Of a stretch of 64,000 nucleotides of DNA, positions 30,274 through 60,861 are shown piece by piece. The notes under the pieces were generated by a model. The model searched no databases. It saw nothing but the letters and a program-made list of their open reading frames with translations, and was not told where the DNA came from. This stretch comes from Rhizophagus irregularis. Lineage: Eukaryota; Glomeromycota; Glomeromycetes; Glomerales; Glomeraceae. The stretch lies in contig NC_089429.1 in assembly GCF_026210795.1 (NCBI RefSeq), positions 3,224,001 to 3,288,000 of the forward strand, in the 5' to 3' direction. The position numbers were made by a program, and so were the translations under genes. Position 1 is the stretch's first letter. Every line of letters begins with the position of its first letter.

Positions 30274-30294
30274 AGTTTTATCCTTTTCCTTTGC

Positions 30295-31266
30295 TAGTAT
30301 TTACGGCCAGACCACCCATTGCCTCTTGGCAGACTAATCTCGGCTGTGTCCTATCATCTTCAATGGGTAACCATTAAACCGAATACTTAATTCCTCAGGT
30401 AACAGCACCACTATAGAAGACATCCCCCATCGGGCCATTTTAGGCTGATCTGAAGCTAGGTACACACCGCCTACTCATCCTATACCCATTGCATGATACT
30501 GATACTCAATTTATTTTACGACCTTTAGAGAGCATCTACTTTCATGGAGGACTTTCGACAGGTAACATCAACCATCTAGTACCCTTCCATACCACCATTT
30601 TAGGTACTAAGTCTCACTCAAAGCCACTACAGCCCGCGATTACCCAGCACCGATAGTACAGTTGTTTACCCCAAGTGGTATACTTTGTAGTGACCACTCG
30701 AACAGGAAGTAGCAGGCATCTGTCCAGGATCACCCCTTATGGTGGGTATCAACCACCAGGGATCACCAACCAGAACCCAAGGAGTAGGGAATCGAACCCC
30801 ATAACCATGCTACCTGTTCTGTGCACGAACACTTTGGTTGGCCTAAGACCTAACAGAAGGTCAAACTACCACTAAGATATTGCACCCTCAGCTTTACCAT
30901 CTAGGACGACCATCTAGCCATTACTGACCCCAAGTGGTATCGTAGAGTGACCACCCGGACAGGAAGTCCCCCCAAAGTATAGTAGTGACCTCAAGGACAG
31001 GACTGCGCACATACCAATGGCCTCATAGGGAACGTTAGAAGGACACCACGACCCTTAGTTGAAATGTGCGGCCTAACCGTACACACTAATTCACCATGAT
31101 GCAGTCCAACTACACTAATCCCTGTACCTTCACGCTATTGGTTGTAGCGTCTGCAGTAAAATTCTTTTTATTTTCGTGGTCATGGAAATCGAACCTGTGA
31201 TCTCACCATACTCAGGCTTAATGAGGGTCTCAGTGACTAACCACTGAGATAGGGTGACCAACCCTT
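30295..31266 (-). mobile_element. Full-length SINE-like element (972 bp), 3'-most member of array 1
   Basis: Read on the minus strand it starts gttggtcaccctatctcagtgg (A-box-like), with a B-box-like ggttcgatttcc about 55 bp later (31190-31260 region). A second tRNA-like module is at 30787-30883. No protein is encoded. It is flanked by aggaaaaggataaaact on both sides (31267-31286 and 30274-30294 on the plus strand as agttttatccttttcc). The length is unusually large for a SINE. It aligns to 8658-9905, 45660-50091 and, for its 5' half, 59271-60805. Confidence 0.75.
30787..30883 (-). promoter_or_regulatory. Second internal Pol III-like A/B box module in the SINE
   Basis: On the minus strand tatcttagtggtag (near 30860-30875) resembles an A box and ggttcgattcc (30788-30798) matches the B-box consensus. 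Together they look like a degraded tRNA-like unit downstream of the head. The same module occurs in the copies near 9440-9530 and 49632-49710. Promoter activity is inferred from motif match only. Confidence 0.55.
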
Positions 31267-31568
31267 AGTTTTATCCTTTTCCTGTGCAAACAGTCTTATG
31301 ACTTTATCTTTTATTTATATTTTAAATTTCGAAAACATAATCGAACAGTATTACAAAAATAAGAAAATAAACTAATAAAAAATAAAAAGAGTAGCTTCAC
31401 GACTCATACAAGTAAAGAAATCTAAACTAAAATAAAATCAAAGCAAAGAAAAACTAAACTATTACAGAATCGCATACCCCAACTTTACCCGAAGGCCAGT
31501 GTGAGTCAACTATCCAACATCCAAAAATCCAGTTCGTTACCAGAAAGAAATCCTAAGAGGTTGAACTG

Positions 31569-36923: not shown

Positions 36924-37766
36924 TACTACACTATGATAAAAGGGTAAGTAGTAAAGGGAAATAATTGGGAGTTAAGAATTATTGGGAGTTCGCGTTATCG
37001 CAAGCAGCCAAGAATTGTTTTTGTTGAGCCATGCCTTGTTGAACTGTTTTAGTGAGTTCGGTAACTGTAGCAGTAAGAGAGGAAAGGCGATCTTGTGGTG
37101 AAGTGGCAGGACCAAGGATCAAACTCATACGGGGAGGGAGAGGAATATGCGATTGAGCAGTGAAATTGGGGCCATTTGGTGGCGAAGCTGGAGAACTAAA
37201 ATCCATGAGATTGTCACTAAGACGTCTAGGATCAGAGGATTCAGCATTATCCCATCCTTGATTCATAGGCTCTGGTACAGGAACAAGGGGAGTCTGAGGA
37301 TGCGGGATTTTGGAGATAAGAGGAGGAGAAGAAGAATGTTGATCTTCCAACCATTTGACATGATGTTGAAGTTGGGCAAATTCTGTAGTGAGGTGAGTAA
37401 TCTCTTCAAGTATAATAGTGATTTGTTCAGTAATATATTGCCAATCCATCAAAGGCGGAACATCCATTGCAGCAATGTCGTGATCCAAATCCGATTGAGA
37501 AGAACGATGAGGATGACGACGATTATTAGGATGAGAGCGTGAACGTGAAGATCTAGGGCGAGATTTGGATCGGGAAGGAACTCTTCTACCAGCGGTATCA
37601 GCATAAGAGCTGTGTTCTGAATTAGCAGGACGCGCAAAACGATTATGACGTTTAGCGGGGTGGGAAGGAGGTAAGTGTTTGTTGTATAATTCACGCAATT
37701 TATCATTGCTAGACCATGGACGAGAAGGACGTTGCGGAGCACGTGATGAAGCACATTTGTCCGGAT

Positions 37767-38863
37767 TAGAGCTCCGCACGGGTCAGGTCAGGTCGAGTAA
37801 TTTGTCTGATCCAAACCGAAAAATTTTTATCAGGTCGGGTCGGGTCGGGTAACCTGCTCTGACCCGACCTGACCCGTCTGACCTGAAAGTATTCAGGTCA
37901 TTTTTCTATAAAATAATATGAAAAAACGCTGTTTTGGCGATTTTTTTCATAAAAGAAGTGGGGAAAAATGCCGTTTCGGCATTTTTCCATTAAATAATAT
38001 GAAAAAACGCTGCTTTGGCGATTTTTTTTATAAAAGAAGTGAAAAAAATGCCGTTTTGGCATTTTTACATAAAATAATATGAAAAAATGCCGTTTTGGCG
38101 ATTTTTTTCATAAAAGAAGTGAAAAAAAATGCCAAAACGGCATTTTTCCATAAGATAAATGAAAAAATGCCACTTTGGCGATTGTTTCATAAAAGAAGTG
38201 AAAAAAATGCCGCTTTGGCAATTTTTTTCATAAAAGAAGTGGAAAAAAATGCTGTTTGGGCATTTTTCCATTAAATAATATGAAAAAACGCCGTTTTGGC
38301 GATTTTTTTCATAAAAGAAGTGGGAAAAAATGCCGAAATGGCATTTTTCCATAAAATAATATGAAAAAAGCCGCTTTGGCAATTTTTTTCATAAAAGAAG
38401 TGAAAAAAAATGCCAAACCGGCATTTTTCCATAAAATAATATGAAAAAACGCCGTTTTGGCGATTTTTTTTCATAAAAGAAGTGAAAAAAAATGCCGAAA
38501 CAGCATTTTTCCATAAAATAATATGAAAAAACGCCATTTTGGCGATTTTTTTCATAAAAGAAGTGAAAAAAATGCTGAAACGGCATTTTTCCATAAAATA
38601 AAATGAAAAACGCCATTTTGGCGTATTTGTTTATAAAAAACAATGCTGAAACGGCGTTTTTTTCATAAGGTAACATGAAAAAACACCATTTCAGAGTATA
38701 AACATTTTTTTTGAGCTAAAGTATTCGGGTTAACAGGTCAATCGGGTCAGGTCAAACCTGTAACCCGACCTGATACCGGGTCACGAATTTGACAACCTGA
38801 CCTGAATATTTTGGGTCAATCCGACGGGTCACCTGAATTGACTCTTACCCGTGCGGAGCTCTA
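37767..38863. mobile_element. 1.1 kb hAT-like element with internal minisatellite
   Basis: Ends tagagctccgcacgggtcag and inverse (right end gacccgtgcggagctcta, with a short difference) are flanked by gtccggat and gtccagat, an 8-bp duplication with one mismatch. Subterminal caggtcaggt and gggtcgggt repeats are typical of Ac-like hAT ends. It sits within the LINE-B ORF1 knuckle region. No transposase is present. Confidence 0.83.
37915..38690. repeat. Minisatellite of ~40- and 80-bp units inside the hAT-like element
   Basis: Alternating units contain cataaaagaagtgaaaaaaa, tgccgaaacggcatttttcc, ataaaataatatgaaaaaa and cgccgttttggcg. The unit cores gccgttttggc and gccgaaacggc are short inverted pairs, so the array can form many small hairpins. 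Long reading frames across it are repeat artefacts. Confidence 0.85.
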
Positions 38864-39340
38864 GTCCAGATTACAACCAGGGCGACCACAACGATGACAA
38901 AGAGAGGAGACTTCGGTAGGTTCATGCCAAGTAAGGCCAGTAGATTTGAGAGCACAAGTGATCCCCATAGCCGATTCTTTAGTAGCAGCAGAGGAGAAGT
39001 GTACATAGGCATAAGGTTTGGCCCTATAAAAAATATGTATACGGTTTTTATACTGTATATACGTATTTTTGATACAGTTTGCATTTTTACATACGGCATA
39101 TCAGTATAATGTATACTGTTCGCAAAATGTGCTTAGTAAAAAATACAATAAAGTATACGGTAAACATACTGTGTGATACAGTATATTAAATTCATACGTC
39201 TATAACGTATATCATTTCTACTGTATATCAGTATTTTGTATACGGTTCACAAAAATATTGTAAATAAAGGATACGGTATACGTATTATTCTACAGTATAT
39301 TAAAATTCATACGTTTATAACGTATTTTCTACAGATATAC

Positions 39341-41084
39341 ACAGGTCAAATAAATAAAAATTAGATTTTTGCCCTTTTTAATATGGCTGTCTGATTTTTT
39401 GGCAATTTTAATATAATATTTCCGATTTTAATAATATTTCTGATTTTTAACATGAAATTGCCGATTTTTGGTTATTTGTAATAGGATTTTTCGATTTTAA
39501 TATATAACATGTGATTATGTATTACGGTTTAATATTTATTTATTAACTTAGATTTTTTTTTTTTATTTCAGTTATAATTATTTTTTTGCCTTAAAAACTT
39601 TACTAAAATACTTTTTAAATACTTTATAAAATAGAATTAAAATATTTTTTTTCTTAAATATAAATACATTTAAATTAAATAACTCATAATTTAAAATATA
39701 AACAAATATTATATTTTTTTTATATATATTTCAAAGTATGGTTTGAGCATTTTGGCTGAAGTAAATCTTATTCTTTTAATTAAAAGTAGTTTAGTAAGTT
39801 TAAAACTGTTAAGATCATAAAAGTACAGTTAATATTTTTGGAATTATTTACATTTTTTATATTATACAATAGTATTAAGTTACAAATTTTTTTACCTTCA
39901 GAGCGTATTTTGAGATCTTTAGCCAAAGTAAATCAACTTCTTATATTAATTGTAAGTTGTTCGGCAGGTTAAAATCTACTTGGATATTAATTTTCACGAA
40001 GGTACAGTTAATACTTGATGAGTTATTTACAATTTTCACAACAGTACTTATTCACGACTTTTATTTTTTTCATTTTGTCACTTCAGAGCGTATTTTGAGC
40101 ACTTTATCCAAAGTAAACCAACTTCTTATATTAATTGAAAGTTGTTTAGCATGTCAAAATCTACTTGAATATTAATTTTCACGAGGGTACAGTTAATACT
40201 TGATGAGTTATTCACGATTTTCACAATGGTACTCATTTACGAATTTTATTTTTTTCCGTTTTGTCACTTCAGAGCGTATTTTGAGCACTTTAGTCAAAGC
40301 AAATCGACTTCTTTTATTAATTGAAAGTTGTTTAGCATGTCAAAATCTACTTGAATATTAATTTTCACGAAGGTACAGTTAATACTTGATGAGTTATTCA
40401 CGATTTTCACAATGGTACTCATTTACGAATTTTATTTTTTTCCGTTTTGTCACTTCAGAGCGTATTTTGAGCACTTTAGTCAAAGTAAATCGACTTCCTT
40501 TATTAATTGAAAGTTGTTCAGCAGGTCAAAATCTACTTGGATATTAATTTTTACGAAGGTACAGTTAATACTTGATGAGTTATTCACGATTTTCACAACG
40601 GTACTCATTTACGAATTTTATTTTTTCCATTTTGTTACTTCAGAGCGTATTTTAAGCACTTTAGCCAAAGTAAATCGACTTCTTTTATTAATTAAAAATT
40701 GTTCAGCAGCTTAGAATCTACTTGAATATTTATTTTAATGAAGGCACAGTTAATATTTGTGGAGTTATTAATTTTTTATAATTGTGCGTATTGCATTAAA
40801 TTACAAGTAAATTTATATTCTTAATGTATTTTGTTTAAAATTAATTAATTATTTATTTAAGATTAGTTTTTTATTTAATATTGCTTAATAAAATATTTTT
40901 TAAATTTTAATTCAATATTACAATATAATTTTTTATAAAAATATATATTTCATAATGTATATACAATTTTTTTGTATAGTGAAAAAACTGAAAAATGTGG
41001 TTAAGAATTGGTAATACGGCTGTAAAAAGTCACAAATCGGACAAATATAGCTAAAATCAGCCAATTTTTATTTATTTGACGTGT
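39341..41084. mobile_element. Inner TIR-bounded segment holding satellite units
   Basis: Left edge acaggtcaaataaataaaaa and right edge inverse acacgtcaaataaataaaaa form a ~22-bp inverted pair inside the larger element. Flanks (agatatac and gatagagt) do not give a clear duplication. The centre holds the satellite at 39880-40740. Confidence 0.55.
39880..40740. repeat. Satellite array, ~4.5 units of about 180 bp (reverse orientation)
   Basis: Units contain cttcagagcgtattttgagc, ctttagtcaaagtaaatcga, ttaattgaaagttgttcagc and aatctacttggatattaatt. They are the reverse complement of the 27.7 kb satellite with moderate divergence. Short reading frames at 39957 and 40514 are repeats of the same unit and not genes. 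Confidence 0.85.
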
Positions 41085-41157
41085 GATAGAGTAAGTTTTT
41101 CTACACTTTAAAGCATCAAACAATACTAGTATCTGCTAATATGTACTACCCAAAAAC

Positions 41158-41400
41158 TAGAGGTAGGGTCCGGTCATCCGTTCAATCCGTTATTTCATCC
41201 GATCACGTGATGTAGATCACGGGTATGTAGATCATATCCTTTTAGGCGATACCCGTTCCACAAAAATATTTTTCTAAAAATCGATCTTACCGATTTTGGA
41301 AATTAGTGTAACATTCGACCTAAAAAAGGAAATGATCGACACAAATCACGTGATTTGACCGGATGACCGGATTTACGTTTTTCACCGGAGCCTACCTCTA
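41158..41400. mobile_element. 243-bp hAT-like MITE with tagaggtagg ends
   Basis: Ends tagaggtagggtccggtcat and inverse tagaggtaggctccggtgaa are flanked by a perfect 8-bp duplication ccaaaaac (41150-41157, 41401-41408). The interior includes cacgtgat motifs on both sides (gatcacgtgatgtagatcac). Non-coding. Confidence 0.87.
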
Positions 41401-41479
41401 CCAAAAACTCACTGATGTAAAATCACAATTATTAAAAAATTCACAAGAATTTTTGTTAATACTGTTTAATTTTTAAGTT

Positions 41480-41880
41480 CAAAGTCCGATTGATAATACT
41501 AAATTCAAAACTCAATTATAAATCATTTTTATAAATTATAATTTAAAAATTAAGCAGTATTAAGGAAAATTCTCATGAATTTTTCTTAATACTACTTAAT
41601 ACTAATTTAACTAATTTAGTATTAAGGTTTTAATTTAAAAATTAAGCAGTATCAAGGAAAATTCTTGCGAATTTTTCTTAATACTGCTTAATTCTAATTT
41701 AACTAATTTAGTATTAAGGTTTTAATTTAAAAATTAAGCAGTATCAAGGAAAATTCTTGCGAATTTTTCTTAATACTGCTTAATTCTAATTTAACTAATT
41801 TAGTATTAAAGCTTTAATTTAAAAATTAAGCAGTATCAAGGAAAATTCTTGCGAATTTTTCTTAATACTGCTTATATCTG
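41480..41880. repeat. Tandem repeat of ~116-bp units with ttaagcagtatcaaggaaaa core
   Basis: Three to four units alternate ttaagcagtatcaaggaaaa, ttcttgcgaatttttcttaa, tactgcttaattctaattta and actaatttagtattaa. Each unit holds an inverted pair (ttaagcagtat / atactgcttaa), so it can form a hairpin. Further units lie at 42980-43215. Confidence 0.8.
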
Positions 41881-44100
41881 CCAATTCGTGAAATTAGCCA
41901 AACATAAAGATTTGCACATTTTAACAAGAATTATGTTTCACAAGCTTAAATTGTATGTGTTACATAATCAGATGATCTAAATCTATCAAAAAATAAAAAA
42001 AAATTTTTTAACGTTTATTCAAAAATAACAATGGCAACTACTTTCTTTTACAATCACTTTTCAATCACTTTTCAATCAGATTTTTGTTAGGTGACTTAGA
42101 AAAGTTTATAGGCATATATAGCAGGTTTTTTTTAATCAGTAAGTAAGAAAACAAATATTAATAATTTTTATTAATAAGAAAAATCTTTTTTCATTTATTT
42201 TTAACCTTATTTCCTTTTTTTTTTTAGTAAAAATATATACAAAATAAAAATGTGAGTTATGATTTAGAGTTTTTGAGATGTTTTTTTTTGTTTTTTACTA
42301 TACTAATTTTATTCTACTTGTTAATTACTTTTTAAAATTGATTTTATTAATTTATTCAATTTAAAACAGAAATGGCAAATAAAAACTTGTTAAGTAAAGT
42401 AAAAAGAGCCCAATAATACCTGTAAAGATCATCTTTTGGTAAGAATTATAATTTTAAAAATTTTTGTGTCAGAGTTTTATTCAATTAACAAAATCGTTAA
42501 TATCTCGGCGTACATGTATGCTAAACACATATATTTATATTCATATGAAAGCCCAGAATCTACTCTACCTGAACGAAAAAAGATTATTCAAATCGAATTA
42601 CTAGATGTGAAGATATTAGCGATCAAAGTCAAAGGTTAAAAATAAATATATTGAACGTAATTATTCAGCAACTTGTGATCCAATTCATGTGATATTTGGT
42701 TTATGGATAGCTCTTGATTACCTCTTTCTAATGAATATAAATTCATTCATCTAGCACACATACACGTTAAGTTATTCAATATTTTGTCATGACAATTATA
42801 TTTAAATTTTTTAATTTTAATGATATTATTAAAAAAATCAAAAAATAATATAATCAAATCAATTTTATTTATATCAGCGGTGTGAATCTATCATTTTCAT
42901 GTAAGTTGTATTAGCATTTTCTTAATAAAGTTAGTTTTTTGAATATAAAAACTTAATTCCATAAATCAGTCCATATGTTAATTCTAATTTAACTAATTTA
43001 GTAGTATTAAGGCTTTAATTTAAAAATTAAGCAGTATCAAGGAAAATTCTTGCGAATTTTTCTTAATACTGCTTAATTCTAATTTAACTAATTTAATATT
43101 AAAGCTTTAATTTAAAAATTAAGCAGTATCAAAGAAAATTCTCAAATTTTTCTTAATTCTAATTTAGCTAATTTAGTATTAAGGCTTTAATTTAAAAATT
43201 AAGAAAAATTTTTACAAATTTTCTTATTAAAAAAAAGAACTTTTAAATTACTAATTAAACTTTAAAAACAATCTGTATGATTTAAATTTTAAAAAAATAC
43301 TTCTGCTTTTTAATTTTCGCATTTCTACATTTAACCAATTAAAATTCAGCTGATCGCCGATCACATGCATTAATAACACGTTATTGTTTATTTTTTGTTT
43401 ATTTTTTCAAAAATATTCTTTTCTCTTCTTTTTTTTAGAAAAAAAAGACAATAAAAATGAATACCAAAATTATTTTAACATATAATAATAAAAATTAAAT
43501 AAAAAACTTATTTTGATAATATATAATATATATATTTGTACCAAACTACTAATTATACAAAAAGTGATATGCACGTATATCAATTAACAATTACTTTCAC
43601 TAATATCTCTCTGGAATTGTAATGGTGAATTTTAACAATATTAATTAAACAACTATATGTACACCGTTTTATGTTTTTATTTTTATATTAATATTATATG
43701 TTAACATATATTAATTATATTTTTTTTTTACTTTTATGTATTTTATTTAATTTTTTTAATATATTACTAACATTACTTCTATCGTTTTATTACTTTTTTA
43801 TATCTAACTAATATATTAATAATATTACTAACTTTTTATTATTTTTTTTTACTAACCTTTTATTATTCCTTTTTTATATTTAAAATAATGATAATATTAC
43901 TAATTAAATTTCTTTTTTTTTTGTTTATATTTTGCTAATATTATTTTTTTTACAAATAGTATATTATTTTATACTAGTTTTTTATTTATATTATTTATAA
44001 AAAAATATTTGTATATTTAATATTATTTAATAAAAATTTTATTGATTATAAATGCATTTTAAATTCTGTTTGCAAATATAAAATATACGATTTAATTGAA
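41881..44100. other. AT-rich non-coding interior of the 5.4 kb element
   Basis: Apart from the repeat units at 42980-43215, I see no coding feature. A segment at 42500-42620 resembles the atctcggcat/gaaagccc/agatattta module at 63050-63220. Small reading frames here lack any recognisable motif. Confidence 0.5.
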
Positions 44101-46448
44101 TAATATATACTATTTATCAGTACAAAATATGCAGTTTAAACTGGAAAAAAGTACTGTTTATCAGTATAAAATATACAGTTTATCCTGGAAAAGTATACTG
44201 TTCGCATTATAAAATATAAAACAATATACTGTTTATTGGTATAAAACATACGGTTTTTCTACTGTTTACAAGTATAAAACATACGGGTGAAACTGGAAAA
44301 ATATACTGTATGCAAACCGTATATATGATACGGTGTGCAGAATACCGAATATATACAGTATGTGAAAATACTGTAATTATACGGTAATAATACTATAAAT
44401 ATACTGTTCGCAAAATACGAAAATACAGTATACTAACCGTATATATATTTTTTATAGGGTGGGATTGTAAGAGTTGTAGGAGAAAGGGATGTTAACGCTT
44501 TTAGCGGAAACTTCTTCGGCAATTTCAGAAAGGTCAGCGGCAACAGAACCGCGTAGCGCCAGCAAGTGCAACATGAGCGCGTTTGACAGCGCGTTGATCA
44601 GGTGAATGAGAAGCAGGACAGACGCGTAAGCAGTATCCAGTACAAAGTACAGCCCACGTGTTTTCAAATTGATCCATGGAGGCGGCGGAGTCAAAAACTA
44701 TATACGCAGTGTGATAAAGTTTTGAAAGACGCGTGCGGCAGTGGGTAACAATACCATAACGGGAGAATGTGCCCCTTAATTGTGCATCGGTGACAAAGAG
44801 AGGGATGTCGGTAACTACCAGGGTACAAAGCTGTTCATCTGCCTTTTTAGCAGATGGGTCATGCTCGTGGAACTGTAGATCATGCAGGGAGGCGATAGGC
44901 GTAGCGATAGCTTTTTCCATATCAGGTTTGGAACGAAAGTAGACAACGATAAGTTTATTATCGCCTGATCCTTGAGTGGTAGCTTTACTACCATAAGAGG
45001 AAAAAGAGGAGAATTCTTGGTCGGTCGCGTCGCAAGCTTCGTGATTGGTTTTGAAGTGGGTCAAAATTCTTCAATAGTAGAGGGCGCAGCCGCAGCGCCC
45101 GCCGAAGGGGGAAGATTGTATAGCGGCAGTAGACGTGTCAGGAGACGCAGCGCGTTCGAGGTTCAGGAGGTGAAATTTCCACAGATTTTCCTTTATCTGC
45201 AGAGTTAGAAGGGGAATGTTGAGTCGTCATGGGAAGTACGAGTCGGGGAGGCGAAGGGGACGCGTTGGTGTCAACGAGAGGGGGAGACAAAGTTGAAGTA
45301 TTTTCCTGAGGAGCAGGAGGAGTCAAAATATTGTCTTGGTCCATAACAGGTTCAGAAGAAACCCGTGTGCGTTTTGCAAAGTTGTCGGTCAAAGGTTGCG
45401 AAGTAGGACCAGGAGTAGAAGCAGAAGAACCTTGACCTTGAACGTTGCCAGAAGGAGGACTCTGGGCAGGACGTTTTGGAGCAGAAGTACCAGAAGCTTT
45501 ATTATTTCGTCTGTTAGTCATAGCTAAAAGTAGAAGGGAGAACTAAAATATGTAATAGTTAGTAGTAACGCAAAGTAAATAATAAAAATACTTCAAAAAA
45601 ATCTTTTTTATTTTTTGTCGCAATATTGTCATGAAGGCAGTTTTATCCTTTTCCTTTGCTAATGTTTACGGCCAGACCACCCATTGCCTCTTATGAGACT
45701 AATCTCGGGTCATGTCCTATCATCTTCAATAGGCAACCATTATACCGAGACTTAATTCCTCAGGTAACAGCACCACTATAGAAGACATCCCCCATCGGGC
45801 CATTATAGGCTGATCGGAAGCTAGCGAGACACGCCGCCTACTTATCCTATACCCATTGCCCATTGCATACTGATACTCAATTTATTTAACGACCTTTAGA
45901 GAGCATCTACTTTCATGGAGGACTTTCGACAGGTAACATCAACCATCTAGTACCCTTCCATACCACCATTTTAGGTACTAAGTCTCACTCAAAGGCCACT
46001 ACAGCCCGCGATTACCTAGCACCGATAGTACAGTTGTTTACCCCAAGTGGTATACTTTGTAGTGACCACTCGGATAGAAGTAGCAGGCTTCTGTCCAGGA
46101 TCACCCCTTATGGTGGGTATCAACCACCAGGGATCACCAACCAGGACCCAAGAAGTGGGGAATCGAACCCCATAAGGGGCGTGCCAGAAATCAGCTGATT
46201 TCACTCAATTAGTAAGGCTAACCCTCCCACCCCCACCTGATCATTTAATCGATCATTTTGATTGGCTAAAACATTTTATATATAAGATTATAATTTCGCT
46301 TTACATCTGACTATCCGATCATTGGTTGAAAAATTTAATAATAGATATTGATTTTACATTGTTTAAAAAAAATTTTAATGATAAATAAAAAATCTTTACT
46401 ATCTATTTTCAAATAAAGTATAAATACATAAAAAAAAAAAAATAAATC

Positions 46449-49500: not shown

Positions 49501-50112
49501 GGCAGTCGACCTTAAATTATTATATGTAAGAAATTAACCAATAAAAAGCATGTCACGTGATTAAAGACCTGATCCGCAGACTGAACCCCCCACCCCCTAT
49601 CAAATCAGCTGATTTCTGGCACGCCCCTAACCATGCTACCTGTTCTGTGCACGAACACCTTGGTTGGTCTAAGACCTAACAGAAGGTCAAACTACCATTA
49701 AGACATTGCACCCTCAGCTTTACCATCTAGGACGACCATCTAGCCATTACTGACCCCAAGTGGTATCGTGGAGTGACCACCTAAACAGGAAGTCCCCCCA
49801 AGGTATAGTAGTAACCTCAAGGACAGGACTGCGCACATACCAATGGCCTCATAGGGAACGTTAGAAGGACACCATGACCCTTAGTTGAAATGTGCAGCCT
49901 AACCGTACACACTAATTCACCATGATGCAGTCCAACTACACTAATCCCTGTACCTTCACGCTATTGGTTGTAGCGTCCGCAGTAAAATTCTTTTTATTTC
50001 CGTGGTCATGGGAATCGAATCTGCGACCTCACCATACTCAGGCTTAATAAGGGTCTCAGTGATTAACCACCGAGATAGGGTGACCAACTCTAGTTTTATC
50101 CTTTTCCTTTGC

Positions 50113-50260
50113 TAATGTTTACGTCCGACCACCATTCACTCTTATGAGACTAATCTTGGGTCTGTGTCCTATCATCTTCAATGGGCAACCATTATACCGA
50201 GTACTTAATTTTTCAGGTAACAGCACCACTATAGAAGACATCCCCCATCGGGCCATTATA
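50113..50260 (-). mobile_element. 5'-truncated SINE fragment, 5'-most member of array 1
   Basis: It matches only the last ~148 bp of the SINE (minus strand: ggcccgatgggggatgtctt ... ggtcggacgtaaacatta). The junction repeat agttttatccttttcc lies at 50092-50107 and again at 50261-50276. 5' truncation is expected for target-primed reverse transcription products. Confidence 0.75.
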
Positions 50261-50276
50261 AGTTTTATCCTTTTCC

Positions 50277-50747
50277 GATTACTGGCTGACGAGTTATTCA
50301 ACAAAATGTTAAACATCGGCATTATAATATTTTTTGATTTACGTTTACTGCGCCATTTAACATTTTGCTAGATTTCTCGGTACCTAGTGATTGTAAAAAG
50401 ACGATTTATAGCTCGTTGGAATCGCCTCATCGAGACAAATCGAATGGTGGTAAGTTCATCTTTCTGTGATCTGTGATCAATATTGATGGAGTTATTACTT
50501 AAAAACCATTTAATATTTTTTAATTTCGGAAATTAATTTAGTGATTGGATTTCGACGTATTTTATACCATTAGAACCGTCTCATCAAGACGAATCGAATG
50601 GCGGTAAGATCATCTCTCTACGATTAATATTGGTGAAGTTACGATACAATAAAGTTTTAAGTATAATTTTGGCTAAAATTATGTTAATTTTTGGCCGGAA
50701 TTATGATATGCAAATATAAGAAATTTTTTATATAGTCACATCTCTTT
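50277..50747. repeat. Region with two direct copies of the cgtctc/gagacg foldback module
   Basis: Copies at about 50370-50460 (cctagtgattgtaaaaagac, ttggaatcgcctcatcgaga, aatcgaatggtggtaag) and 50540-50625 (ttagaaccgtctcatcaaga, aatcgaatggcggtaag) share the module found in the foldbacks at 926, 8563 and 62467. A truncated TA-type MITE end (tatagtcacatctctttat) follows at about 50731-50747. Confidence 0.65.
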
Positions 50748-50762
50748 ATAATCACCAAATAT

Positions 50763-51231
50763 TGATCCTGGGTAACACCTACAAGCTTACTGTCCAGGTG
50801 GTCACTACAAAGTATACCACTTGGGGATTACAACTGTACTATCGGTGGTGGGTAATCGCGGGCTGTAGTGGCGCTTTGAGTGAGACCTGTTACCTAATAT
50901 GGTGGTATGGAAGGGGTCTAGATGTTTGAAGGTTATCGACGAAAGTCCTTCGTGACGTAGTAGTGGTGAGGGGTTATAATAGTAGCCGTTACAGTATCGT
51001 ACAACAGATTAAAGGACGAGTAGGGTGGTGTTCGGCAGATTCGAAGGCCTTCGGGTCCCTGGGATAAGTCCTTGCGTTTCGGTTGTGGTGTTGAATTGTC
51101 CCTGTTAAAAAGGTGGCGGGGATGGTTACATCATGGCTTAGTGAGGATGATGCAATGAACGACCTACCTCCATAGCCTTCAATAGAGGGTGCGGAAAGTA
51201 GTGGCCACTAAACTTACAAAACACTTGTAAA
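50763..51231 (+). mobile_element. 5'-truncated SINE, first member of array 2
   Basis: It corresponds to the 3' half of the SINE at 59271-60805 (taacacctacaagcttactg to cactaaacttacaaaacact). It is flanked by ataatcaccaaatat at 50748-50762 and 51232-51246. It lacks the tRNA-like head. Same orientation as LINE-A. Confidence 0.78.
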
Positions 51232-51387
51232 ATAATCACCAAATATGAGGATCATTGCAACTCTTTCCTGAATTTTTGAAAATACTAATAAAATTAATTT
51301 TTGAAATTTTCGTTCGAAAATTTCTAAGTGCTCGTTCATAATACTAATATTTCCACAGTTGCTTTCCTCTTTACTGAGCTTTATACT

Positions 51388-53520
51388 ATGACTACACCTC
51401 CAGCTCCTTTTGTTATTAACCCAGATATTCTGCCGCCACCGCGTCCTGTTATCTCTGCTTCCCTTCCCTTCCAGGACCGACCCCTTTACCTTTCATTTCC
51501 CACCTAATACCGCCGGCGTACCAAATAAACGTTCGCGTACTGTCTCGAGGACGCTATGAATGTTGATATAACTTCGCCCTCTGCTCCTGCTCCCAACCTT
51601 ATTTCTACCGTTCCTTCTGGTCTTCCTGTCAACAAAGTCCATGTGATTACACCTCCTCAAAATACTACCACTCCTGTTGAAACTGTTGATGCTTCTATCC
51701 ATGCTCCCTCTAACACCAGTAATAAAGGCAAAGCTGTCGTCTTTGATATCCCAGAACGACGACCATCTCCTGATGGGAATGCTGCTGCTATCAAATCCGC
51801 ACCTTCTCGTTATCATGCTGTGGCCTACTTACACGACACGCCTGACGCGTTCAAAGCTAAATTCACCACCAACTGCTCCATGTGTGACGAAGTGGATTGT
51901 TCGCTCTCCTGTTATTCTTCTTATGGTGCTCGCGCACGATGTGAAGGATCAGCTGATAACAAGAAAATCCTTATCTTCTTCAATAATCATGATGATTATA
52001 CCGATTGTATCACCTCCCCACGTGCCGATCTCCTTGATTTGGCCTTCAGTCATTATTCTCCTGCAGACGCCAAGCTCAGTGATGAAATGAAGTCTTTGTT
52101 CGTCACTGATATCCCACTTTTCCTAACCGAGACTCAAGTCCGTCAGGCATTTTCCCGATATGGCACTGTAATCAAGTGCAAACTTACTCCTAGGAAATAT
52201 TACTATAATGGACATATCCAGTTTTCCTCCGCAGATGCAGTTACCCAATTTAATGATATTTGGACGATCATTTGCCTTGGTAATTCTTTACGTGTCTGTC
52301 TGGCATCTTTTTCGAAATCCCAACGCGATAGCCGCAGAGAACATGTTGCTATCCTCGCCGGCATCCCAAAGAATATTAAAGAAGCTGACCTGTTGGAAAT
52401 TGCTACTCAAGTTAACGCTAAGGCCCTTAACGTTCCTCTATCTATCAGTTCCTACAAGCCTAAACCCTATGTATATTTGAATTTCTCTTCATTTGAATCT
52501 CTTGAAGCTGCCAAAGAAATGACCGTGGCTTTCCGCGGCAAAGGATTAACATGGCACCCTCCCAATGAAGCACAAACTTTATGCCAGGTTTGTGGGCGTC
52601 CTGGTTGTTCTCCCTCTGTATGTAATCCTCATACCACACGGAAAGTGGATGATCGCCTTAATAAACTTTATTCTCGCTTCAATGCTGGCTCTAGACGTGG
52701 TCATCAGGATTCACGCCAATCACGTAAAAATTCCAATTCCCGTTCAAGATCGCGATCCAATTCTAGATCCCGCAATAATAATTCCTCTTCATCCCGCTCC
52801 AACAACAATAACAATAATACTAACACTTCTCGTCCCAATACTTCTCGAAGTAACAACCGGACCAACAATAATACTAATAATCACAGGAACAATGAAAATT
52901 CTTCCGGTTCTACTCAACCTCCATATAAACCTCATTCTGTCAGTTATACACCACCTACTTCTCCATCTGACAATCCTGCCCATACACTTCCTCAACATAT
53001 TATTGATGATTTAAAGGTGCAGATCAAAGAGATCGTTAACACCCTACATACTCTAGAGGAAACTGTCTCTTGGATGAATGATACTATCACGTCCCATGAG
53101 TATAGGCTATCTGAGCTTGAATCAATGATGAATTATGACAACCCTGGTGACTCTGATTTGTATCTGCCTCGTGATGATCATGAAAATCAAAATCATTCTT
53201 ATGATAATGGATGGGATGATGCCCCACCCCATGACACGAATTCTGGATTCAATCTTCCTCTCCATACTTCCCCTTCTCTCATGGATACTTCTCCTGATGC
53301 TTCTTTCTCAGCTCTGGATCCTAACTCCGTCTTATCAAGAAGACATGTCCCGTTGCCTAACTCCCGACCTACTATTATTGCTCCCGATGCTAATACTTCC
53401 CGTTTGCAATTGGAGATTTCTAATGTCACCAATACACAAAAGAATCTTTCTGCCCAACTTGGTTCGATTATGGAAAAATTGGACTCCTTCTCTCCCTCAA
53501 AAACCCTCCCCTTCCAATGA
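51388..53520 (+). pseudogene. LINE-A ORF1: two RRM-like domains, zinc knuckle, SR-rich and coiled-coil tail
   Basis: The long open part is 51556-53520 (654 codons). A probable true start MTTPPAPFVINP at 51388 is separated from it by two small frame changes (about 51490-51510 and 51540-51555), judged from alignment with LINE-B. Counting from 51556: RRM-like 1 at residues ~178-250 (LFVTDIPLFLTETQVRQAFS), RRM-like 2 at ~262-335 (VAILAGIPKNIKEADLLEIA), CQVCGRPGCSPSVC knuckle at ~343-356, Ser/Arg/Asn-rich at ~375-450, and coiled coils at ~484-525 and ~615-648. It should bind LINE RNA and assemble into RNPs. Its stop TGA overlaps the ORF2 ATG (ATGA at 53517-53520), suggesting coupled translation. 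Confidence 0.85.
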
Positions 53521-56500
53521 TTGAACACCAATTTATATCGGGTGGTTCACAGGGATCTCACCCCCCTGATAGTGCGCTACTTAATATTAATAGTCCTAAT
53601 AACTCTCCTTCTTCCTTTTCCCCTCTTATTAATTTTGGACAAATCAATGTTAATGGTCTGTGCTCCCCTGTTTGTCAGTTGCATTTGTTAAATTATTTTC
53701 TCCATTCTTCTTTTGGCATTTTATCTTTAAATGATACTCGTCTTACTTCTTCTAGTGCTAAATTTATTTATCAAAATGAACATGCCCAACATAATTTTAA
53801 GTCCTATTGGGCTCCTTTCCCTTCTAATTCACGACCTCATGATGGTGTTGGTCTTTTACTTCGCCATCCCTTACATAAACATGTTCAGAAAATTGATCCT
53901 TGGAAAGGTCGCCTTTTAAAATTAGATCTTTTTTTTCATCAAACAAAAATTTCTATCATTTCTGTTTATATTCCTCCCTATCATTCTGTTCATTATAAAG
54001 AACGTGATGCTATTTTTGCCCAACTTAATTTATGGCTTGATAAAGCCCGCTCTAATAACTATCACGTAGTCATCCTTGGTGATTTTAATGCAGATGAAAT
54101 TTCACATTCATATCTCCCTCAACATTATTTGAAAATTTTACGATCACTTTCTTCTCGATATTTTACGGATCATCAATCTTATATTTCTTCAATTTCAGGT
54201 CCTAGTCCTACCTTTTATCATCAGAATGGTTCTTCTAGACTTGATTATATTTGGTCATCCCCTGGCTTTCTTGCTCCCAGTCTTTTCTCTCATGTTGAAT
54301 CTAGTCCTAAGTTGAATGATAACCAATTTACTGACCACCGTGTACTCATAACGGCCTTCGACTTTAATTCTTGTTTCGCTACTTTAGCCAAAGCTAGACT
54401 AAAACAGAAAAGCGAACAACGCACCATTTTTCTCTATAAGAATTTAAAAGAAGACACGTGGGACACATTTTCTAATGAAGTAAACTCACGTCTTGAGTTG
54501 TACTTGGTCACACACCATCCTTCTGTATCTTCACTTTCAGCTCTTTCATTAGACAAACTTTGGTACGCTCTTAAACGCTCTATTCTTGGTGGTGCCATTG
54601 ATTCTCTTCCATTTCAACATGTATCCAATACTTATCACCATAAATATTCTCTGGAACTTACGATGCTTATTGCTATCAACAAATTCTTGGATAGATTATT
54701 GTTTAAATTGACCACATCTCAGACTACTCGCCCCGCTCAAATTTCACAAATGATCAATTCTTTACCTACACAATTAACTCTTTTGAAATTCCTTTTAATA
54801 GATTATACTATACCTACTTATAGTACAACACCACTTCCTGCTTTTGTCAAATTTTTGCGTTCACAAAAAGCTTTGGTCTCTGCTTATCTTTCCACGCAAT
54901 TTCATCAACATCGTGTGGATTCCATTGAATTTTATACTGCTCTTAGAGATGAACATTTCTCTACGTCGCCGGGTTCTTTTATCTCTTAAGCTCTGTCAGT
55001 GGAACATCGCTCTATCGTTCTTGATAGAGTTTTGGTTGTAATTGACTCCAAACCTACTTTACTTACTGAACCTTCAGACATCAAACAAGCTGCTATCAAA
55101 CACTTCCAATCGGTTGTTACTCCTCCATTGGTTCAGCATTCTTCTATTGATAAATTTCCTCCACGCTGGCAAAGAGCATATACTCCTATTTCTGACATCG
55201 ACTCGTCTTTATACACCTCGGTCATGTCTCCTATTTTGGATGATGAATGGATAAATATTCGCAAATCTATGCCTAATAACAAAGCCTCTGGCCCCTCTAA
55301 AATTTCTTATGAAATGCTCAAACATTTAACTGGAGAAGCTTTCAATTTGTCTCTTGTTTTAGCCAATGCCTGCCTTATTCATGGTGATATTCCTGCAGAT
55401 TGGCGTGAAGCGCTTATTTATCCCATTCCGAAGCCTCATGAATTTGACGCTCAATTAAAGAATACACGACCTATCACTTTATTAGAAACTGTTTGGAAAT
55501 GTGTGGTCAAGATCGTTACAACTCGTCTTTCAAAAATTCTAGCTGATAACCAAATACTTCAGGGTGGTAATTTTGCTGGATTACCAGGTGGATCTACTGA
55601 CATTCCTATCAAAATGCTTGACGCAATTATTCATCAACGCCGCTTTGATAAAACTGATGACCAAGAGTTATGGATTGTTTCCCAAGACATTTCTAAGGCC
55701 TTTGACTCGATTGATTTAAATATGCTCAAGTTGGCTTTAATCCGTTTACATATCCCACCCTTGTTGATAAAATTTATTATCAATCTTTTCACAAGACGCA
55801 ATAACAAAATTATTACTCATTATGGTGATACTTCCGGATATAGAGTTAGAATCGGTATTGATCAGGGTGAAATTATTTCCCCGTTATTATGGGTGATTTA
55901 TTTGGATCCTTTACTTACAACGCTTAATCGAGAAGCTTGTAATCCTTTTATTTTGAAATCCTCTGCTTTATTGGATTATTCCCCGATTGAATATGAACAA
56001 CATAACCTTCCTGTTTCACATATCACATTTATGGATGACTCTACTTTGATTGCTTCATCTAAACGAGGAATTGAAGATCGCCTTTCCATTACAGCTGAAT
56101 TTTATACTTTAAATAATACTCAAGCTAATTCAGCTAAATATATCCTTCTTTCTTCTGAACAATTCTCTCAAACTATAGTGTTTGATCTTTTCCCATCTCC
56201 TTTAATCCAAACTTGTACTCTTACTTTAAAAGCTTTAGCTTTATCCAAGTCTTTTCGCTTTTTAGGTGTCTGGTTTTGGTTTTCAGCTTCTTCTCGCTTT
56301 GTTCATGATCAAAGTATTTCCATGGTCAAAGACATGGCTGCTTTACTCAGTCCTAAGAAACTTTTGGCACAACATGTGGCTTATCTTTATAACGTTGTCT
56401 TACTTCCAAGGCTAGAATTTCGCCTACAAACCACATTATTTGCTGAATCCATTATTAATCGTATGGTTTCTCCAATGCTTTCTCTTATTCGACAAAAGGC

Positions 56501-58990
56501 TGGTTTAGCCTCAGTCACTCCTCTTTCCGCGCTTTTCACATTGTTGCCGTTCTCTATTCAACAAGCATTTGGTCGATTTCTATCATCTCATGTAGCTTCA
56601 TGGCAAAAAATTTTTTCTCACCCTTTACATATAAAACCTTTGCCAATTATATGATTACTTATCTCCAAAGCTTCCTAGATTGTGATGCCTGTTCTTCTAC
56701 TATTGACTTGGAACCATGGTCCCATACATTTTCCTTGCGAACACATTCTTTGTTTAATTCTTTATTATTCTCTTCTCGTTTGAATATCACGTGGTCTTTA
56801 TTGTTCCGACCTCTGAGGAAAGATCTACGTCTGGCAATTCCACTCTGGTCGATTTTACCAAAAGACTTATTCACTTCCATGAAAAATGTTCAGAAAAAAT
56901 TTTGTACTCGTTTTCTTGCCCAATTGGTTACTCCGTGTGGCTCTCGGCTTCTTCCATGGAAAGATTTACGCTTTCTTAAATGAGTTTCGAACAAAGGATC
57001 TGTGCCTGCTTGGTTTACTTATTTATTTAATTTAGTTGTTATTTCTAATTCTTCTTCTTTTTTTCTTTTACCGCAATTTAGAATACCTAATTCCTATACT
57101 GTAGCTTCTATCTGTTCTATAGATATTAGTCGAAATTATTTGTTCAATCCACAATGGGCTATTTTTTTTAATCGCGATACTAACTCTTTCCTTGTTGGCC
57201 GTGTGATCATTACCTATCCTGCTCCGCGAAATGAAGCTCTTATTTCACATTGGATTGCGTCATCTATCGATGACTTATTATCAGAATTCACTGCATGCCA
57301 AGGTTGTGCCTCTGCTATTCTGCGATCCTCTACTTCCAAAACATTGTTTAAACGATGTCCCTCTGAAAAGTGCTTCTCTTATATGCCTTTATCAAGTCTT
57401 ATCCGTTACCTTACGAAGCCTCATACTTATATACATGTGGATACTCGTTCGGTCTCACTTTCCGCTTCGTTAGGCTATGCCAAATCTCTTTTACTATTTT
57501 ATCTTTTTGCTCCAGTTCGGTTACCTCCTATGCTTAACCAAGTGTCTAGGATTTCTGATATCCAACTTCCTTCTTCGGTGTCTACCCTGTATATTGATGG
57601 ATCCTTCCTTCCTCCTTCTAGTCATCCGACACCTTCGATGGCTTATGCATGGACTGCTATCGATTCTGATGGTTTTATTCTTGAATCTCATTATAATACC
57701 ATTCCTTCACTCTTTCCCTCTGCATTGCGTTCCGAAATTTTTGCCTTATTGCATGGATTGGACTCCCTGCCTCGGTATTCCAAGATCACTGTCGCTACTG
57801 ATTGTGCTCAATTAATTTCCTTATGGACTACGTATGTGGATGCTCCGTTCATTCCTAAAATGCTCAAAGAATTCAACCACCTTCTATGGTCTTCGGCACG
57901 AGCTATTATTTCACATAAGAATCTGGAAGTTACTTTAATCAAGGTTCCTGCTCACGCTGACGATTCTTTGAATAACCATGTTGATGACTTAGCGAAAGCT
58001 GCTCATACAGACTCATGTCTTTCCTTTATTTCGCCTGCATTTTTAGCTCCTTGTATTTTACAATTTAATTCTTTACCTGGGGATATGAATATCCGGAAAT
58101 TCATTGGAGATATTTTTGACGCCAAGAGTCTTTTGACTCTTGCTTTATTACCAAGATTCAATCTTAATTCCTCTTTTTCGGATATTGATTGGGCTTGTAC
58201 CAAATTTTGTTTTAATAATAAACAATTACAATCCTCCCATCGAAATGGCCGGTCTGAATTTTGTGCTTTCCGTATCAAGATTTTATTGGATATGCTTCTG
58301 ACACTCACAACTTTTCAAAAACAAAAGCCTCATATCTATGATCCGAGTTGGCTCTATCCTCAGTGCAACTCCTCTCCTGAGACTTTAGACCACTTATGGA
58401 CTTGTCCTTATATTTTACCTGAATTTAGTCCTTTTAATACTTTTAAAACACTTCTGCTGGACCTTAAAACCGTTTGTCTTGGAAAATTTCTCTCTGCAAC
58501 TCCTTTGAAATCTTTACCGGACTATTTCGCTGTGAAATTTATGGCTATGGATTGTTGGGACTGTAACCCTCCTTCAAATTCTTGTCTGCGATTTGCACGT
58601 GGACTTATACCGATGTCTCTTACTAGTTTTCTTGGAACATATTTTTCATCATCCACTATTTGTTCTATTTTTGATACACCTTTACATGAATTTCATTTTG
58701 ATCTCTATGTACAAATTTGGTTGTGCCGTTCCGTTTTCTTTCACCATTGGGAATTAGCTCAAGGCATTACCAATAAAATGAAATCGTCCGCTATTGGACT
58801 TTCTCCTATTATTCGTCCTTTCTCAAATGTTTCTCCTTATTCTTTGACACCTTCCTTGGCGACAGCTTCCTTGGATTTCTGGGTTTCTTGGGTTTCCTCT
58901 TACATAATCCATGGGGGATCTTGGATTTCGCATTTGGATTTTTGGCACCGCTTAACAGTTCAGCCTCTACTTAGGATTTCTTTTTGGTAA
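53517..58990 (+). pseudogene. LINE-A ORF2: endonuclease, reverse transcriptase, RNase H, zinc tail; lightly broken
   Basis: The start MIEHQFISGG overlaps the ORF1 stop. The APE endonuclease spans about 53630-54360 (INVNGLCSP, LGDFNADE, SRLDYIWSS, FTDHRVL). RT follows with QDISKAFDSID near 55690, GIDQGEIISPLLW near 55860 and the catalytic FMDDS at 56028-56042. RNase H lies in 57590-58000 (YIDGS, LRSEIFAL, ATDCAQL, DDLAKAAH). A C-terminal Cys motif near 58360 reads YPQCN...LWTCPYI, with Tyr in place of the Cys seen in LINE-B. Lesions: in-frame TAA at 54987-54989, a frame change near 56630, and TGA at 56981-56983 where Trp is expected. The product copies LINE RNA at a nicked target. Confidence 0.9.
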
Positions 58991-59285
58991 CAGATTGGAT
59001 CTTCGGATATGCTGGATAGTTGACTAACATTGGCCTTCGGGTAAAGTTGGGGTATGCGTTTCTGTAATAGTTTAGTTTTTCTTTACTTAATTTTATTTTG
59101 TTTAGATTTCTTTACTTGTATGAATCGTGAAGCTAGTTCTTTTTATTTTTTATGTTTAATTTTCTATATTTTATTTGTAATATTGTTCGATTTGAGTTTT
59201 GTACTTTTCGTTTAAAAATTTATAATAAAAGATAAAGTCATAAGACTGTTTGCTCATAATCACCAAATATATGAGTTGGTCACCC

Positions 59286-59352
59286 TATCTTAGTGGTTAG
59301 TCACTGAGACCCTCATTAAGCCTGAGTATGGTGAGGTCGCAGGTTCGATTTC
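59286..59352 (+). promoter_or_regulatory. Pol III-type A and B boxes in the SINE head
   Basis: The A-box-like tatcttagtgg lies at 59286-59296 and the B-box-like ggttcgatttc at 59342-59352. The ~56-nt spacing fits a tRNA ancestor with a long variable arm (Ser/Leu type). Function is inferred from consensus match. The head is conserved in the copies at 9.9 kb, 31.2 kb and 50.0 kb. Confidence 0.65.
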
Positions 59353-59862
59353 CATGACCACGGAAATAAAAAGAATTTTACTGCGGACGCTATAACCAAT
59401 AGCGTGAAGGTACAGGGATTAGTGTAGTTGAACTGCATCGTGATGAATTAGTGTGTACGGTTAGGCCGCACATTTCAACTAAGGGTCATGGTGTCCTTTT
59501 AACGTTCCCTGCGGCCATTCGGCATGTGCGCAGTCCCCTGTCCTTGAGGTCACTACTATACCTTAGGGGGGACTTCCTGTCTGTGTGGTCACTCTATGAT
59601 ACCGCTTGGGGTCAGTAATGGCTAGATGGTCGTCCTAAATGGTAAAGCTGAGGGTGCAATGTCTTAATGGTAGTTTGACCTTCTGTTAGGTCATAGACCA
59701 CCCAAAGTGTTCGTGTACAGACAGATAGCTTGGTGGCGATTGGCTCAATTCCTCTCCGACGCCTTGCATGGCGTATTCCCTTGGCAGGGTTGATACCCAC
59801 CAATTAGGATGATGATCCCGTAACACCTACAAGCTTACTGTCCAGGTGGTCACTACAAAGTA

Positions 59863-60386
59863 CACAGTGAAATTCGATAAACCGGATCTATCGGTTCCAC
59901 TAAAAATATCCGGTTTATCGGGATATCCGGTTTAGCGAAAAAATTTCGATATATTGAAAATCTATTATATTGAATTTTTAAAAAATTTTCATGCTAATAA
60001 AACTAATATACACTATAATTTGATTTTTTTCATCTAGTTTTAAGTTATAGGAGGTCATGAAAATGAATATAAAATATTTTAATTGAATATATAAGTAATA
60101 TTAACTTCAGCCGGAATTAAGATTTTTATAATTCCGGCCAAATTTAAGATTTACCGCATCACGTTACTTAAATTTTATTGGTTCCGAGCTACGTGATCCG
60201 GTTTATCGAATCATTTTTACTATAGCTGGTTAGAAAATTGATCCGTTATAGCGAATATCGAGCTTTTACTAGTAAACTCCGGTATATCGAGCCTATTTTA
60301 ATATACGTGATTTGGTTCCAGCAAAAAAGTCCGGTTTAGGCCCAAATCCGGTTTATCGAATATCCGGTTTATCGAATTTCACTGTG
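59863..60386. mobile_element. 524-bp TA-target TIR element inside the SINE
   Basis: Ends cacagtgaaattcgataaac and its perfect inverse are flanked by TA (59861-59862, 60387-60388). The uninterrupted SINE at 50802-50812 reads caaagtatacc, giving a direct empty site. The interior repeats atccggtttatcg words. Ends and target fit pogo-like Tc1/mariner non-autonomous elements. Confidence 0.9.
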
Positions 60387-60820
60387 TATACCACTTGGGG
60401 ATTACAACTGTACTATCGGTGGTGGGTAATCGCGGGCTGTAGTGGCCTTTGAGTGAGACCTGTTACCTAATATGGTGGTATGGAAGGGGTCTAGATGTTT
60501 GAAGGTTATCTGACGAAAGTCCTCCGTGACAGTAGTAGTGGTGAGGGGTTTATAATAGTAGCCGATTACAGTATCGTACAACGGATTAAAGGACGAGTAG
60601 GGTGGTGTTCTTCCGATTCAAAGGCCTTCGGGTCCCTGGGGTATGCCTGATTGATGGACGTGCTGGATAAGTTGTCTTGGTTAAAAGGTGGCCTTGATGA
60701 CATCTGGTGGTTCAATGATGGTGAGGATACGAACGACCTACCTCCATAACCTTCAATAGAAGGTGCGGAAAGTAGTGGCCACTAAACATACAATACACTT
60801 GTAAAATAATCACCAAATAT

Positions 60821-60859
60821 GGACTGTCCCAAATGTGTGACTATAAAGAGAGTTGACTG
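60821..60859. mobile_element. Right end of a TA-type MITE that hosts array 2
   Basis: The sequence gtgactataaagagagttga then ctg, followed by TA, is the inverse of the cagtcaactctctttatagtcac end. The corresponding left part at 50731-50747 is degraded. The array therefore inserted into a small MITE. Confidence 0.6.
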
Positions 60860-60861
60860 TA

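What the first reader, a model, noticed from the sequence alone, without database searches (positions are those of the whole stretch)
50748..60820. Array 2: the same SINE-LINE-SINE stacking with a different 15-bp junction repeat
ataatcaccaaatat occurs at 50748, 51232, 59256 and 60806, flanking a 5'-truncated SINE, LINE-A and a full SINE, all plus strand. The site lies in an unrelated MITE, so this is independent of array 1 yet has the same order (truncated SINE, LINE, SINE). Two such arrays in one window suggest a mechanism: an endonuclease re-cutting its own duplicated site, or coupled SINE/LINE priming.
Basis: partly seen in the sequence, partly recalled or inferred. Interest (0 to 1): 0.82.

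Follow-up and report, generated by a model that had tools for sequence, protein, structure and literature searches.

The report
Retrotransposons stacked at a regenerated target
In this genome one family of jumping genes and its short hitchhiker insert at one 15-letter site inside another mobile element, and because each insertion copies that site, further insertions pile up there like beads on a string.

Summary
In detail: the 15-mer ATAATCACCAAATAT (T_A) occurs exactly four times, separating a truncated SINE, an 8.0-kb LINE and a full SINE, all on +. T_A occurs 646 times in the window's genome, its reversed control once. T_A is the target of a sequence-specific, APE-type LINE (LINE-A) and a roughly 1-kb SINE (SINE-A): 39 of 39 LINE-A tails and 16 of 16 SINE-A tails examined outside the window, chosen without reference to the target, end at T_A. 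T_A lies in a 965-bp non-autonomous DNA transposon, with at least 288 empty sites. Each insertion duplicates T_A, so later insertions can land there: one array carries a rare T_A variant at all eight junctions. Neighbours occur in every order, so SINE-LINE-SINE is no rule. Array 1 works alike: its repeat (T_B) is the target of LINE-B and SINE-B and lies about 627 bp away on the other strand of the same host transposon, not in an unrelated MITE. The mechanism has precedent (R1 arrays with SIDEs). Less usual are two targets in one DNA transposon and SINE tails that do not resemble the LINE tails.

The parts
50261..50747 (+). host DNA transposon (non-autonomous, TA-flanked), part left of target T_A; about 140 bp shorter between the two targets than the 8 copies
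   Evidence: blastn of one 965-bp host copy (host 283-667 and 585-927); host defined
50748..50762 (+). T_A copy 1 (ATAATCACCAAATAT)
   Evidence: left flank host, right flank truncated SINE
50763..51231 (+). 5'-truncated SINE-A
51232..51246 (+). T_A copy 2
51247..59255 (+). LINE-A, full length (8009 bp)
   Evidence: other copies start and end at closely similar sequence
51556..53520 (+). LINE-A ORF1, 654 aa, partial RRM match
   Evidence: PF00076, profile positions 1-32 of 70
53517..54989 (+). LINE-A ORF2, APE-type endonuclease part; in-frame stop at its end in this copy
   Evidence: PF03372, PF14529
54999..56654 (+). LINE-A ORF2, reverse transcriptase part; reading frame shifts near its end in this copy
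   Evidence: (PF00078)
57002..58990 (+). LINE-A ORF2, C-terminal part with RNase H; preceded by a stop in this copy
   Evidence: PF00075
59256..59270 (+). T_A copy 3
59271..60805 (+). SINE-A, full length (1009 bp without the insertion)
59863..60386 (+). TA-flanked MITE-like insertion inside SINE-A
   Evidence: 27-bp inverted repeat ends, TA included
60806..60820 (+). T_A copy 4
60821..60861 (+). host DNA transposon, right end
   Evidence: host 910-965 at 60806-60861, 100%
49624..50276 (-). second small array in the same host copy, at T_B (50276-50261 and 50107-50092): truncated SINE-B, then a SINE-B cut off at its 3' side
30274..46175 (-). array 1: SINE-B part (46175-45671), T_B, LINE-B (with inserted repeats), T_B, SINE-B, T_B (30289-30274), then host

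Best explanation
LINE-A is a target-sequence-specific non-LTR retrotransposon. Its endonuclease is inferred to nick the bottom strand at the left edge of T_A and the top strand at its right edge, so that target-primed reverse transcription leaves each insert between two intact T_A copies. T_A occurs naturally in a multicopy DNA transposon. SINE-A is inferred to use the same machinery at the same site. Because T_A is regenerated, any T_A, in host DNA or at an array junction, can be hit again; arrays grow by serial independent insertions in any order. Shown by sequence: the fixed junction, the 15-bp duplication, the empty sites, the shared rare variant and the lack of a fixed order. Inferred: the nick positions, target-primed reverse transcription, and mobilisation of SINE-A by LINE-A.
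For: Of 646 T_A sites (control 1), exact strings account for 288 empty hosts, 106 LINE-A tail junctions and 66 SINE-A tail junctions. 39 of 39 LINE-A tails picked by tail similarity end at T_A with at most 1 mismatch. Of 100 listed LINE tails (of 178) with an exact 15-nt tail motif, the script puts 54 at T_A (up to 3 mismatches), 44 at T_B (up to 4) and 2 at 'other', which by eye are T_A or T_B with a few extra bases. 16 of 16 SINE-A tails end at T_A, 15 exactly; 20 of 20 SINE heads picked by head similarity abut T_A (6) or T_B or a close variant (14). At 90 T_A sites the left neighbour is host (65), LINE tail (19) or SINE tail (6), never another element. The variant ATAATCAACAAATAT occurs 17 times in the genome (control 2), 8 of them at the 8 junctions of one array: LINE, four SINEs, LINE, LINE (the interiors of the first and last LINE were not read). 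Endonuclease, RT and RNase H domains are present.
Against: No enzyme was assayed. The LINE and SINE samples are taken from best-scoring matches, so old decayed copies are under-sampled. SINE-A and LINE-A tails share no detectable sequence (shuffle P 0.966), so the usual tail-sharing evidence for a SINE-LINE pair is missing. Arrays are more clustered than a model in which every T_A is an equal target (13 occupied of 64 hosts with 25 elements, expected 18.2, P 0.008); later birth of empty hosts or uneven access could explain this, but neither was tested. Within-array LINE heads are slightly more alike on average than between arrays (89.6 v 85.1).
Confidence: 0.93

Rival explanations
1. Arrays arise by tandem duplication or unequal crossing-over between repeats, not by repeated insertion.
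For: Array units are head to tail; the eight T_A copies of the C12 array are identical; LINE heads within arrays are on average slightly more alike than between arrays (89.6 v 85.1).
Against: The four neighbouring SINEs of the C12 array are only 86.3-93.3% identical. LINE heads within three arrays are 86.9-94.5% identical (10 pairs), not above the best pairs between arrays (110 pairs, max 95.5). Truncated copies start at different points directly after T_A.
Confidence: 0.04
2. SINE and LINE are copied together in one event, by coupled priming or template jumping.
For: SINE and LINE copies abut frequently; template jumps are reported for R2 (PMC3414825, passages).
Against: A single event would not leave a T_A copy at the internal junctions, yet they carry one. 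All four neighbour orders are about equally common.
Confidence: 0.02
3. The junction repeats are internal parts of one composite element.
For: Two arrays in this window share the order SINE, LINE, SINE.
Against: 18 of 40 LINE-A tails are followed by host and 22 by other elements; the target exists empty at 288 exact sites.
Confidence: 0.005
4. SINE-A is moved not by LINE-A but by another, unseen element with the same target.
For: SINE-A and LINE-A tails do not resemble each other.
Against: At 90 T_A sites no third kind of element ends at T_A.
Confidence: 0.1

Closest known systems
R1 of Drosophila and the R2/R1 hybrid SIDEs (PMC3414825; passages read, parts of the abstract among them)
   Same: Site-specific LINE with a fixed 14-bp target duplication; several copies stacked in tandem in one target, separated by the duplication; non-autonomous elements interspersed in the same arrays. 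That target-specific members of the R1 clade have an APE-type endonuclease is stated in PMC4640811 (passage).
   Different: The target is a 28S rRNA gene, and the SIDEs carry R1 3' end segments. Here the target is a DNA transposon and the SINE tails do not resemble the LINE tails.
Tx1L in the Tx1D transposon of Xenopus (recalled; in calls only a reference title on Tx1L/Tx2L endonuclease target specificity was seen)
   Same: LINE specific for a site in a DNA transposon (recalled).
   Different: I recall no SINE sharing that site and no two LINE families using opposite strands of one host; not checked beyond the searches listed.
Utopia in U2 snRNA genes (PMC4640811; passages read)
   Same: Target-specific LINE, occasionally inserted in tandem in its target.
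   Different: Restriction-like endonuclease; target is a small RNA gene.
LINE and SINE families of Rhizophagus irregularis listed in PMC11075540 (passages read)
   Same: Possibly the same elements, if the window is from that species, which no call established.
   Different: The main text has no occurrence of 'site-specific' or 'target site'.

Membership tests
Target-sequence-specific APE-type LINE | APE-type endonuclease plus reverse transcriptase | tested here: met
   PF03372/PF14529 and PF00078
Target-sequence-specific APE-type LINE | 3' ends joined to one fixed target sequence | tested here: met
   39 of 39 LINE-A tails at T_A; 12 of 12 LINE-B tails at T_B or a slightly altered T_B
Target-sequence-specific APE-type LINE | fixed-length target duplication, with empty sites holding one copy | tested here: met
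Target-sequence-specific APE-type LINE | endonuclease cuts the target in vitro | not testable with these tools
   needs purified protein
Tx1 or R1 clade | position in the reverse transcriptase tree | not tested
   no reference LINE set at hand; the best PDB matches were R2 and human L1 proteins, which do not place the clade
SINE | tRNA-derived head with Pol III A and B boxes | tested here: inconclusive
   ARAGORN: 0 of 17 heads at normal settings, 10 of 17 at a lowered threshold with no control run; GGTTCGATTCC in 10 of 17, which fits a recalled B-box consensus
SINE | 3' end shared with a partner LINE | tested here: not met
   last 120 nt of SINE-A and SINE-B against LINE-A and LINE-B tails, shuffle P 0.698-0.98
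SINE | same insertion site as the partner LINE | tested here: met
   16 of 16 SINE-A tails at T_A; 20 of 20 SINE heads at T_A or T_B
Non-autonomous TA-flanked DNA transposon (host) | terminal inverted repeats with TA outside them | tested here: met
   CAGTCAACTC...GAGTTGACTG, 951-962 bp in 8 copies; TA on the right in 8 of 8, on the left in 4 of the 4 whose left flank was printed; superfamily not tested

The most novel reading that the evidence does not exclude
The duplicated target may be the shared 'tail'. SINE-A and LINE-A copies are followed by T_A, so read-through transcripts of both would end in T_A and could pair with the nicked bottom strand that primes reverse transcription. A SINE could then use the LINE machinery without any copied LINE tail, just by sitting at the right site. 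This would explain the exact 3' junctions of LINE-A and SINE-A, the absence of tail similarity, and why SINE-A and SINE-B share a 5' part but differ in 3' part and target. The insertion site would itself be the licence for further movement, tying each SINE to its LINE's target and making arrays self-feeding.
Probability: 0.25. Interest if true: 0.75.

Novelty: new variant of a known kind. Interest (0 to 1): 0.55.

Why it matters
It is a natural laboratory for LINE target specificity. Two related LINE families (endonuclease 69%, RT about 75% identical in the window copies) use different sites on opposite strands of one host transposon, each with its own SINE, and hundreds of empty and filled sites sit in one genome. 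It also offers SINEs that follow a LINE's target without copying its tail, which bears on how a LINE recognises SINE RNA. It shows how a transposon can serve as a landing pad in which arrays grow; the one dissected here spans about 30 kb.

Tried and rejected
Looked for LINE-like tails in the SINEs: none by local alignment against 500 shuffles, and the predicted folds of the last 120 nt did not resemble each other by eye. The first run of that test had cut 16 nt off SINE-B and 3 nt off LINE-B; one search repeats it with the right ends and gives the same answer. Looked for a tRNA gene: none in the window; the first test of SINE heads used pieces mostly too short to hold one, so repeats it on 17 heads of up to 160 nt: 0 of 17 at normal settings, 10 of 17 at a lowered threshold without a control. 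Rfam gave only two sub-threshold matches, both inside the inserted MITE. The endonuclease part had no PDB sequence match at E 0.001. A search for site-specific LINEs with arbuscular mycorrhizal fungi listed one general review, not read. Target choice is not mirrored in the endonuclease alone: between LINE-A and LINE-B the ORF1 (42-52%) and the C-terminal part (46%) differ more than the endonuclease (69%). Which T_A of an array is hit preferentially (left or right) could not be settled.

Full report
Observation. The 15-mer is exact at all four stated positions and rare by chance in the window. It separates a 5'-truncated SINE, an 8009-bp LINE and a full-length SINE on the + strand. The LINE carries an ORF1 with a partial RRM match and an ORF2 with APE-type endonuclease, reverse transcriptase and RNase H. 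This copy is broken by a stop after the endonuclease part, a frame change near 56.6 kb and another stop before 57.0 kb. The full SINE contains a TA-flanked 524-bp insertion.

The 15-mer is a target, not just a duplication. In the window's 146.7-Mb genome it occurs 646 times against 1 for the reversed control. I fetched 86 sites outside the window; with the 4 in the window these are the first 90 of the 100 places listed, of 646. Left neighbours are host transposon (65), LINE tail (19) or SINE tail (6). 51 of 90 are empty hosts, 13 are host followed by an element, 13 element followed by host, 12 element followed by element, and 1 has host on the left and an unclassified right flank. Whole-genome exact strings give 288 empty sites, 106 LINE-tail junctions and 66 SINE-tail junctions; I did not partition the remaining sites.

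Specificity tested without selecting on the target. The best 40 of 347 candidate LINE-A tails include the window copy; all 39 others end at T_A with at most one mismatch. A separate census by a 15-nt tail motif lists 100 of 178 tails: 54 T_A, 44 T_B and 2 called 'other' by the script, which by eye are T_A or T_B with a few extra bases. SINE-A tails: 16 of 16 fetched, from 43 matches, 15 exactly and 1 with one mismatch. SINE heads: 20 of 20 fetched (ranks 2-21 of 40) abut T_A (6) or T_B or a close variant of it (14).

Stacking is common and has no fixed order. After T_A, 22 of 40 LINE-A tails meet another element (11 LINE, 11 SINE) and 18 meet host; in the 90-site sample 8 of 19 LINE tails meet another element. 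Of 16 SINE-A tails, 9 meet another element and 7 host (counted by eye). Among 166 exact junctions (100 of 106 LINE, 66 of 66 SINE), 54 have another junction upstream on the same strand within 1,100 bp (SINE) or 8,100 bp (LINE): LINE then LINE 14, LINE then SINE 15, SINE then LINE 13, SINE then SINE 12. Within the same distance in either direction on the opposite strand there are 4. For LINEs 19 of 27 distances are 7.9-8.1 kb, and for SINEs 12 of 27 are 1.01-1.03 kb, the lengths of the two elements. LINE copies lengthened by later insertions are missed by this count.

Serial insertion is shown by a marked target. The variant ATAATCAACAAATAT occurs 17 times in the genome (control 2); eight of these are the eight junctions of one 30-kb array, host-LINE-SINE-SINE-SINE-SINE-LINE-LINE-host. 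I read all eight junctions, the four SINEs and one whole LINE; the interiors of the first and last LINE were not read. The four SINEs are 86.3-93.3% identical to each other. LINE heads in three arrays (10 pairs, 86.9-94.5%) are not above the best pairs from different arrays (110 pairs, mean 85.1, max 95.5), though their mean is higher, 89.6. This fits separate arrivals of different copies into one site that was duplicated each time, and argues against tandem duplication as the main cause; rare duplications remain possible.

Array 1 is the same phenomenon with another target. Its junction repeat GGAAAAGGATAAAACT (T_B) occurs 467 times, control 0. Of 41 LINE-B tail matches I fetched 12 (from the top 17); all 12 end at T_B or a slightly altered T_B, and 7 of 12 are followed by a SINE, 5 by host (counted by eye). 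T_A and T_B lie 626-628 bp apart on opposite strands of one TA-flanked DNA transposon in 8 of 8 copies; these eight were picked because both sites were listed near each other. At 23 T_B sites outside the window the left neighbour is host (10), SINE-B tail (10) or LINE-B tail (3) (by eye); I had left out listed sites already known to lie in such host copies, so these shares are not a fair sample. The host copy of array 2 also carries a small T_B array (49624-50276, minus). On its 3' side array 1 runs into another copy of the same host (host 1-298 at 29992-30289); its other side was not resolved.

LINE and SINE relations. LINE-A and LINE-B tails are alike. Their proteins in the window copies are 69% (endonuclease), about 75% (RT), 46% (C-terminal part) and 42-52% (ORF1) identical. 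SINE-A and SINE-B are 86-95% identical in the first 400 alignment columns, 66-72% in the next 200, 89% in the next 100, then 66% and finally 40-45%. Neither SINE tail resembles either LINE tail (shuffle P 0.698-0.98). Since no third kind of element ends at T_A in 90 sites, LINE-A is the only visible helper for SINE-A; this is inference.

Precedent. Drosophila R1 elements stack in 28S genes separated by their 14-bp duplication, with SIDEs interspersed (PMC3414825, passages). Utopia is occasionally tandem in U2 genes (PMC4640811, passages). Transposons are named among LINE targets in PMC5035012 (passage); Tx1L is recalled. So the mechanism is known in kind; the two-target host and the partnership without a shared tail are the unusual parts. 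My searches listed no paper that I recognised from title and abstract start as reporting this system, but the library holds open-licence papers only and I read passages of seven papers.

Clustering. Treating 64 hosts and 25 elements as a sample, 13 occupied hosts is fewer than expected if every T_A were an equal target (18.2, P 0.008) or if only host T_A were used (20.8, P 0.0001). Re-use of array sites therefore fits better than host-only targeting, and some extra clustering is unexplained.

Noticed in passing
window 49624-50276 (-): A second small array in the same host copy at T_B: a truncated SINE-B and a SINE-B that stops abruptly at its 3' side; the left part of the host was not found beyond it.
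   Followed up: partly
window 8552-9966 (-): A SINE-B copy has T_B and host at its 3' side, but its 5' flank is a short inverted piece of the host (host 202-234) instead of T_B; an aberrant 5' junction. Another host piece (1-202) lies at 2904-3105.
   Followed up: no
LINE-B junctions: LINE-B tails join T_B with variable first bases (e.g. GG, GC, GT, AT), whereas LINE-A tails join T_A at the same base; the start of reverse transcription seems less precise for LINE-B.
   Followed up: no
host transposon, L120-L127: The host carries several internal copies of a repeat around GACGAATCGAATGG; the window copy is about 140 bp shorter between the two targets.
   Followed up: no
window 37.9-43.2 kb: Stretches of tandem repeats lie inside the LINE-B copy of array 1 (14-mers recurring at spacings of roughly 80-190 bp).
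   Followed up: no
window 46449-48419 (+): An open frame of 656 aa next to array 1 that looks like a DNA transposase by eye; not searched.
   Followed up: no
5' junctions after T_A: LINE-A starts as GGAGGATC, GAGGATC or with an extra AT; the host continues GGACTG, so a short G(GA) overlap may help 5' joining.
   Followed up: no
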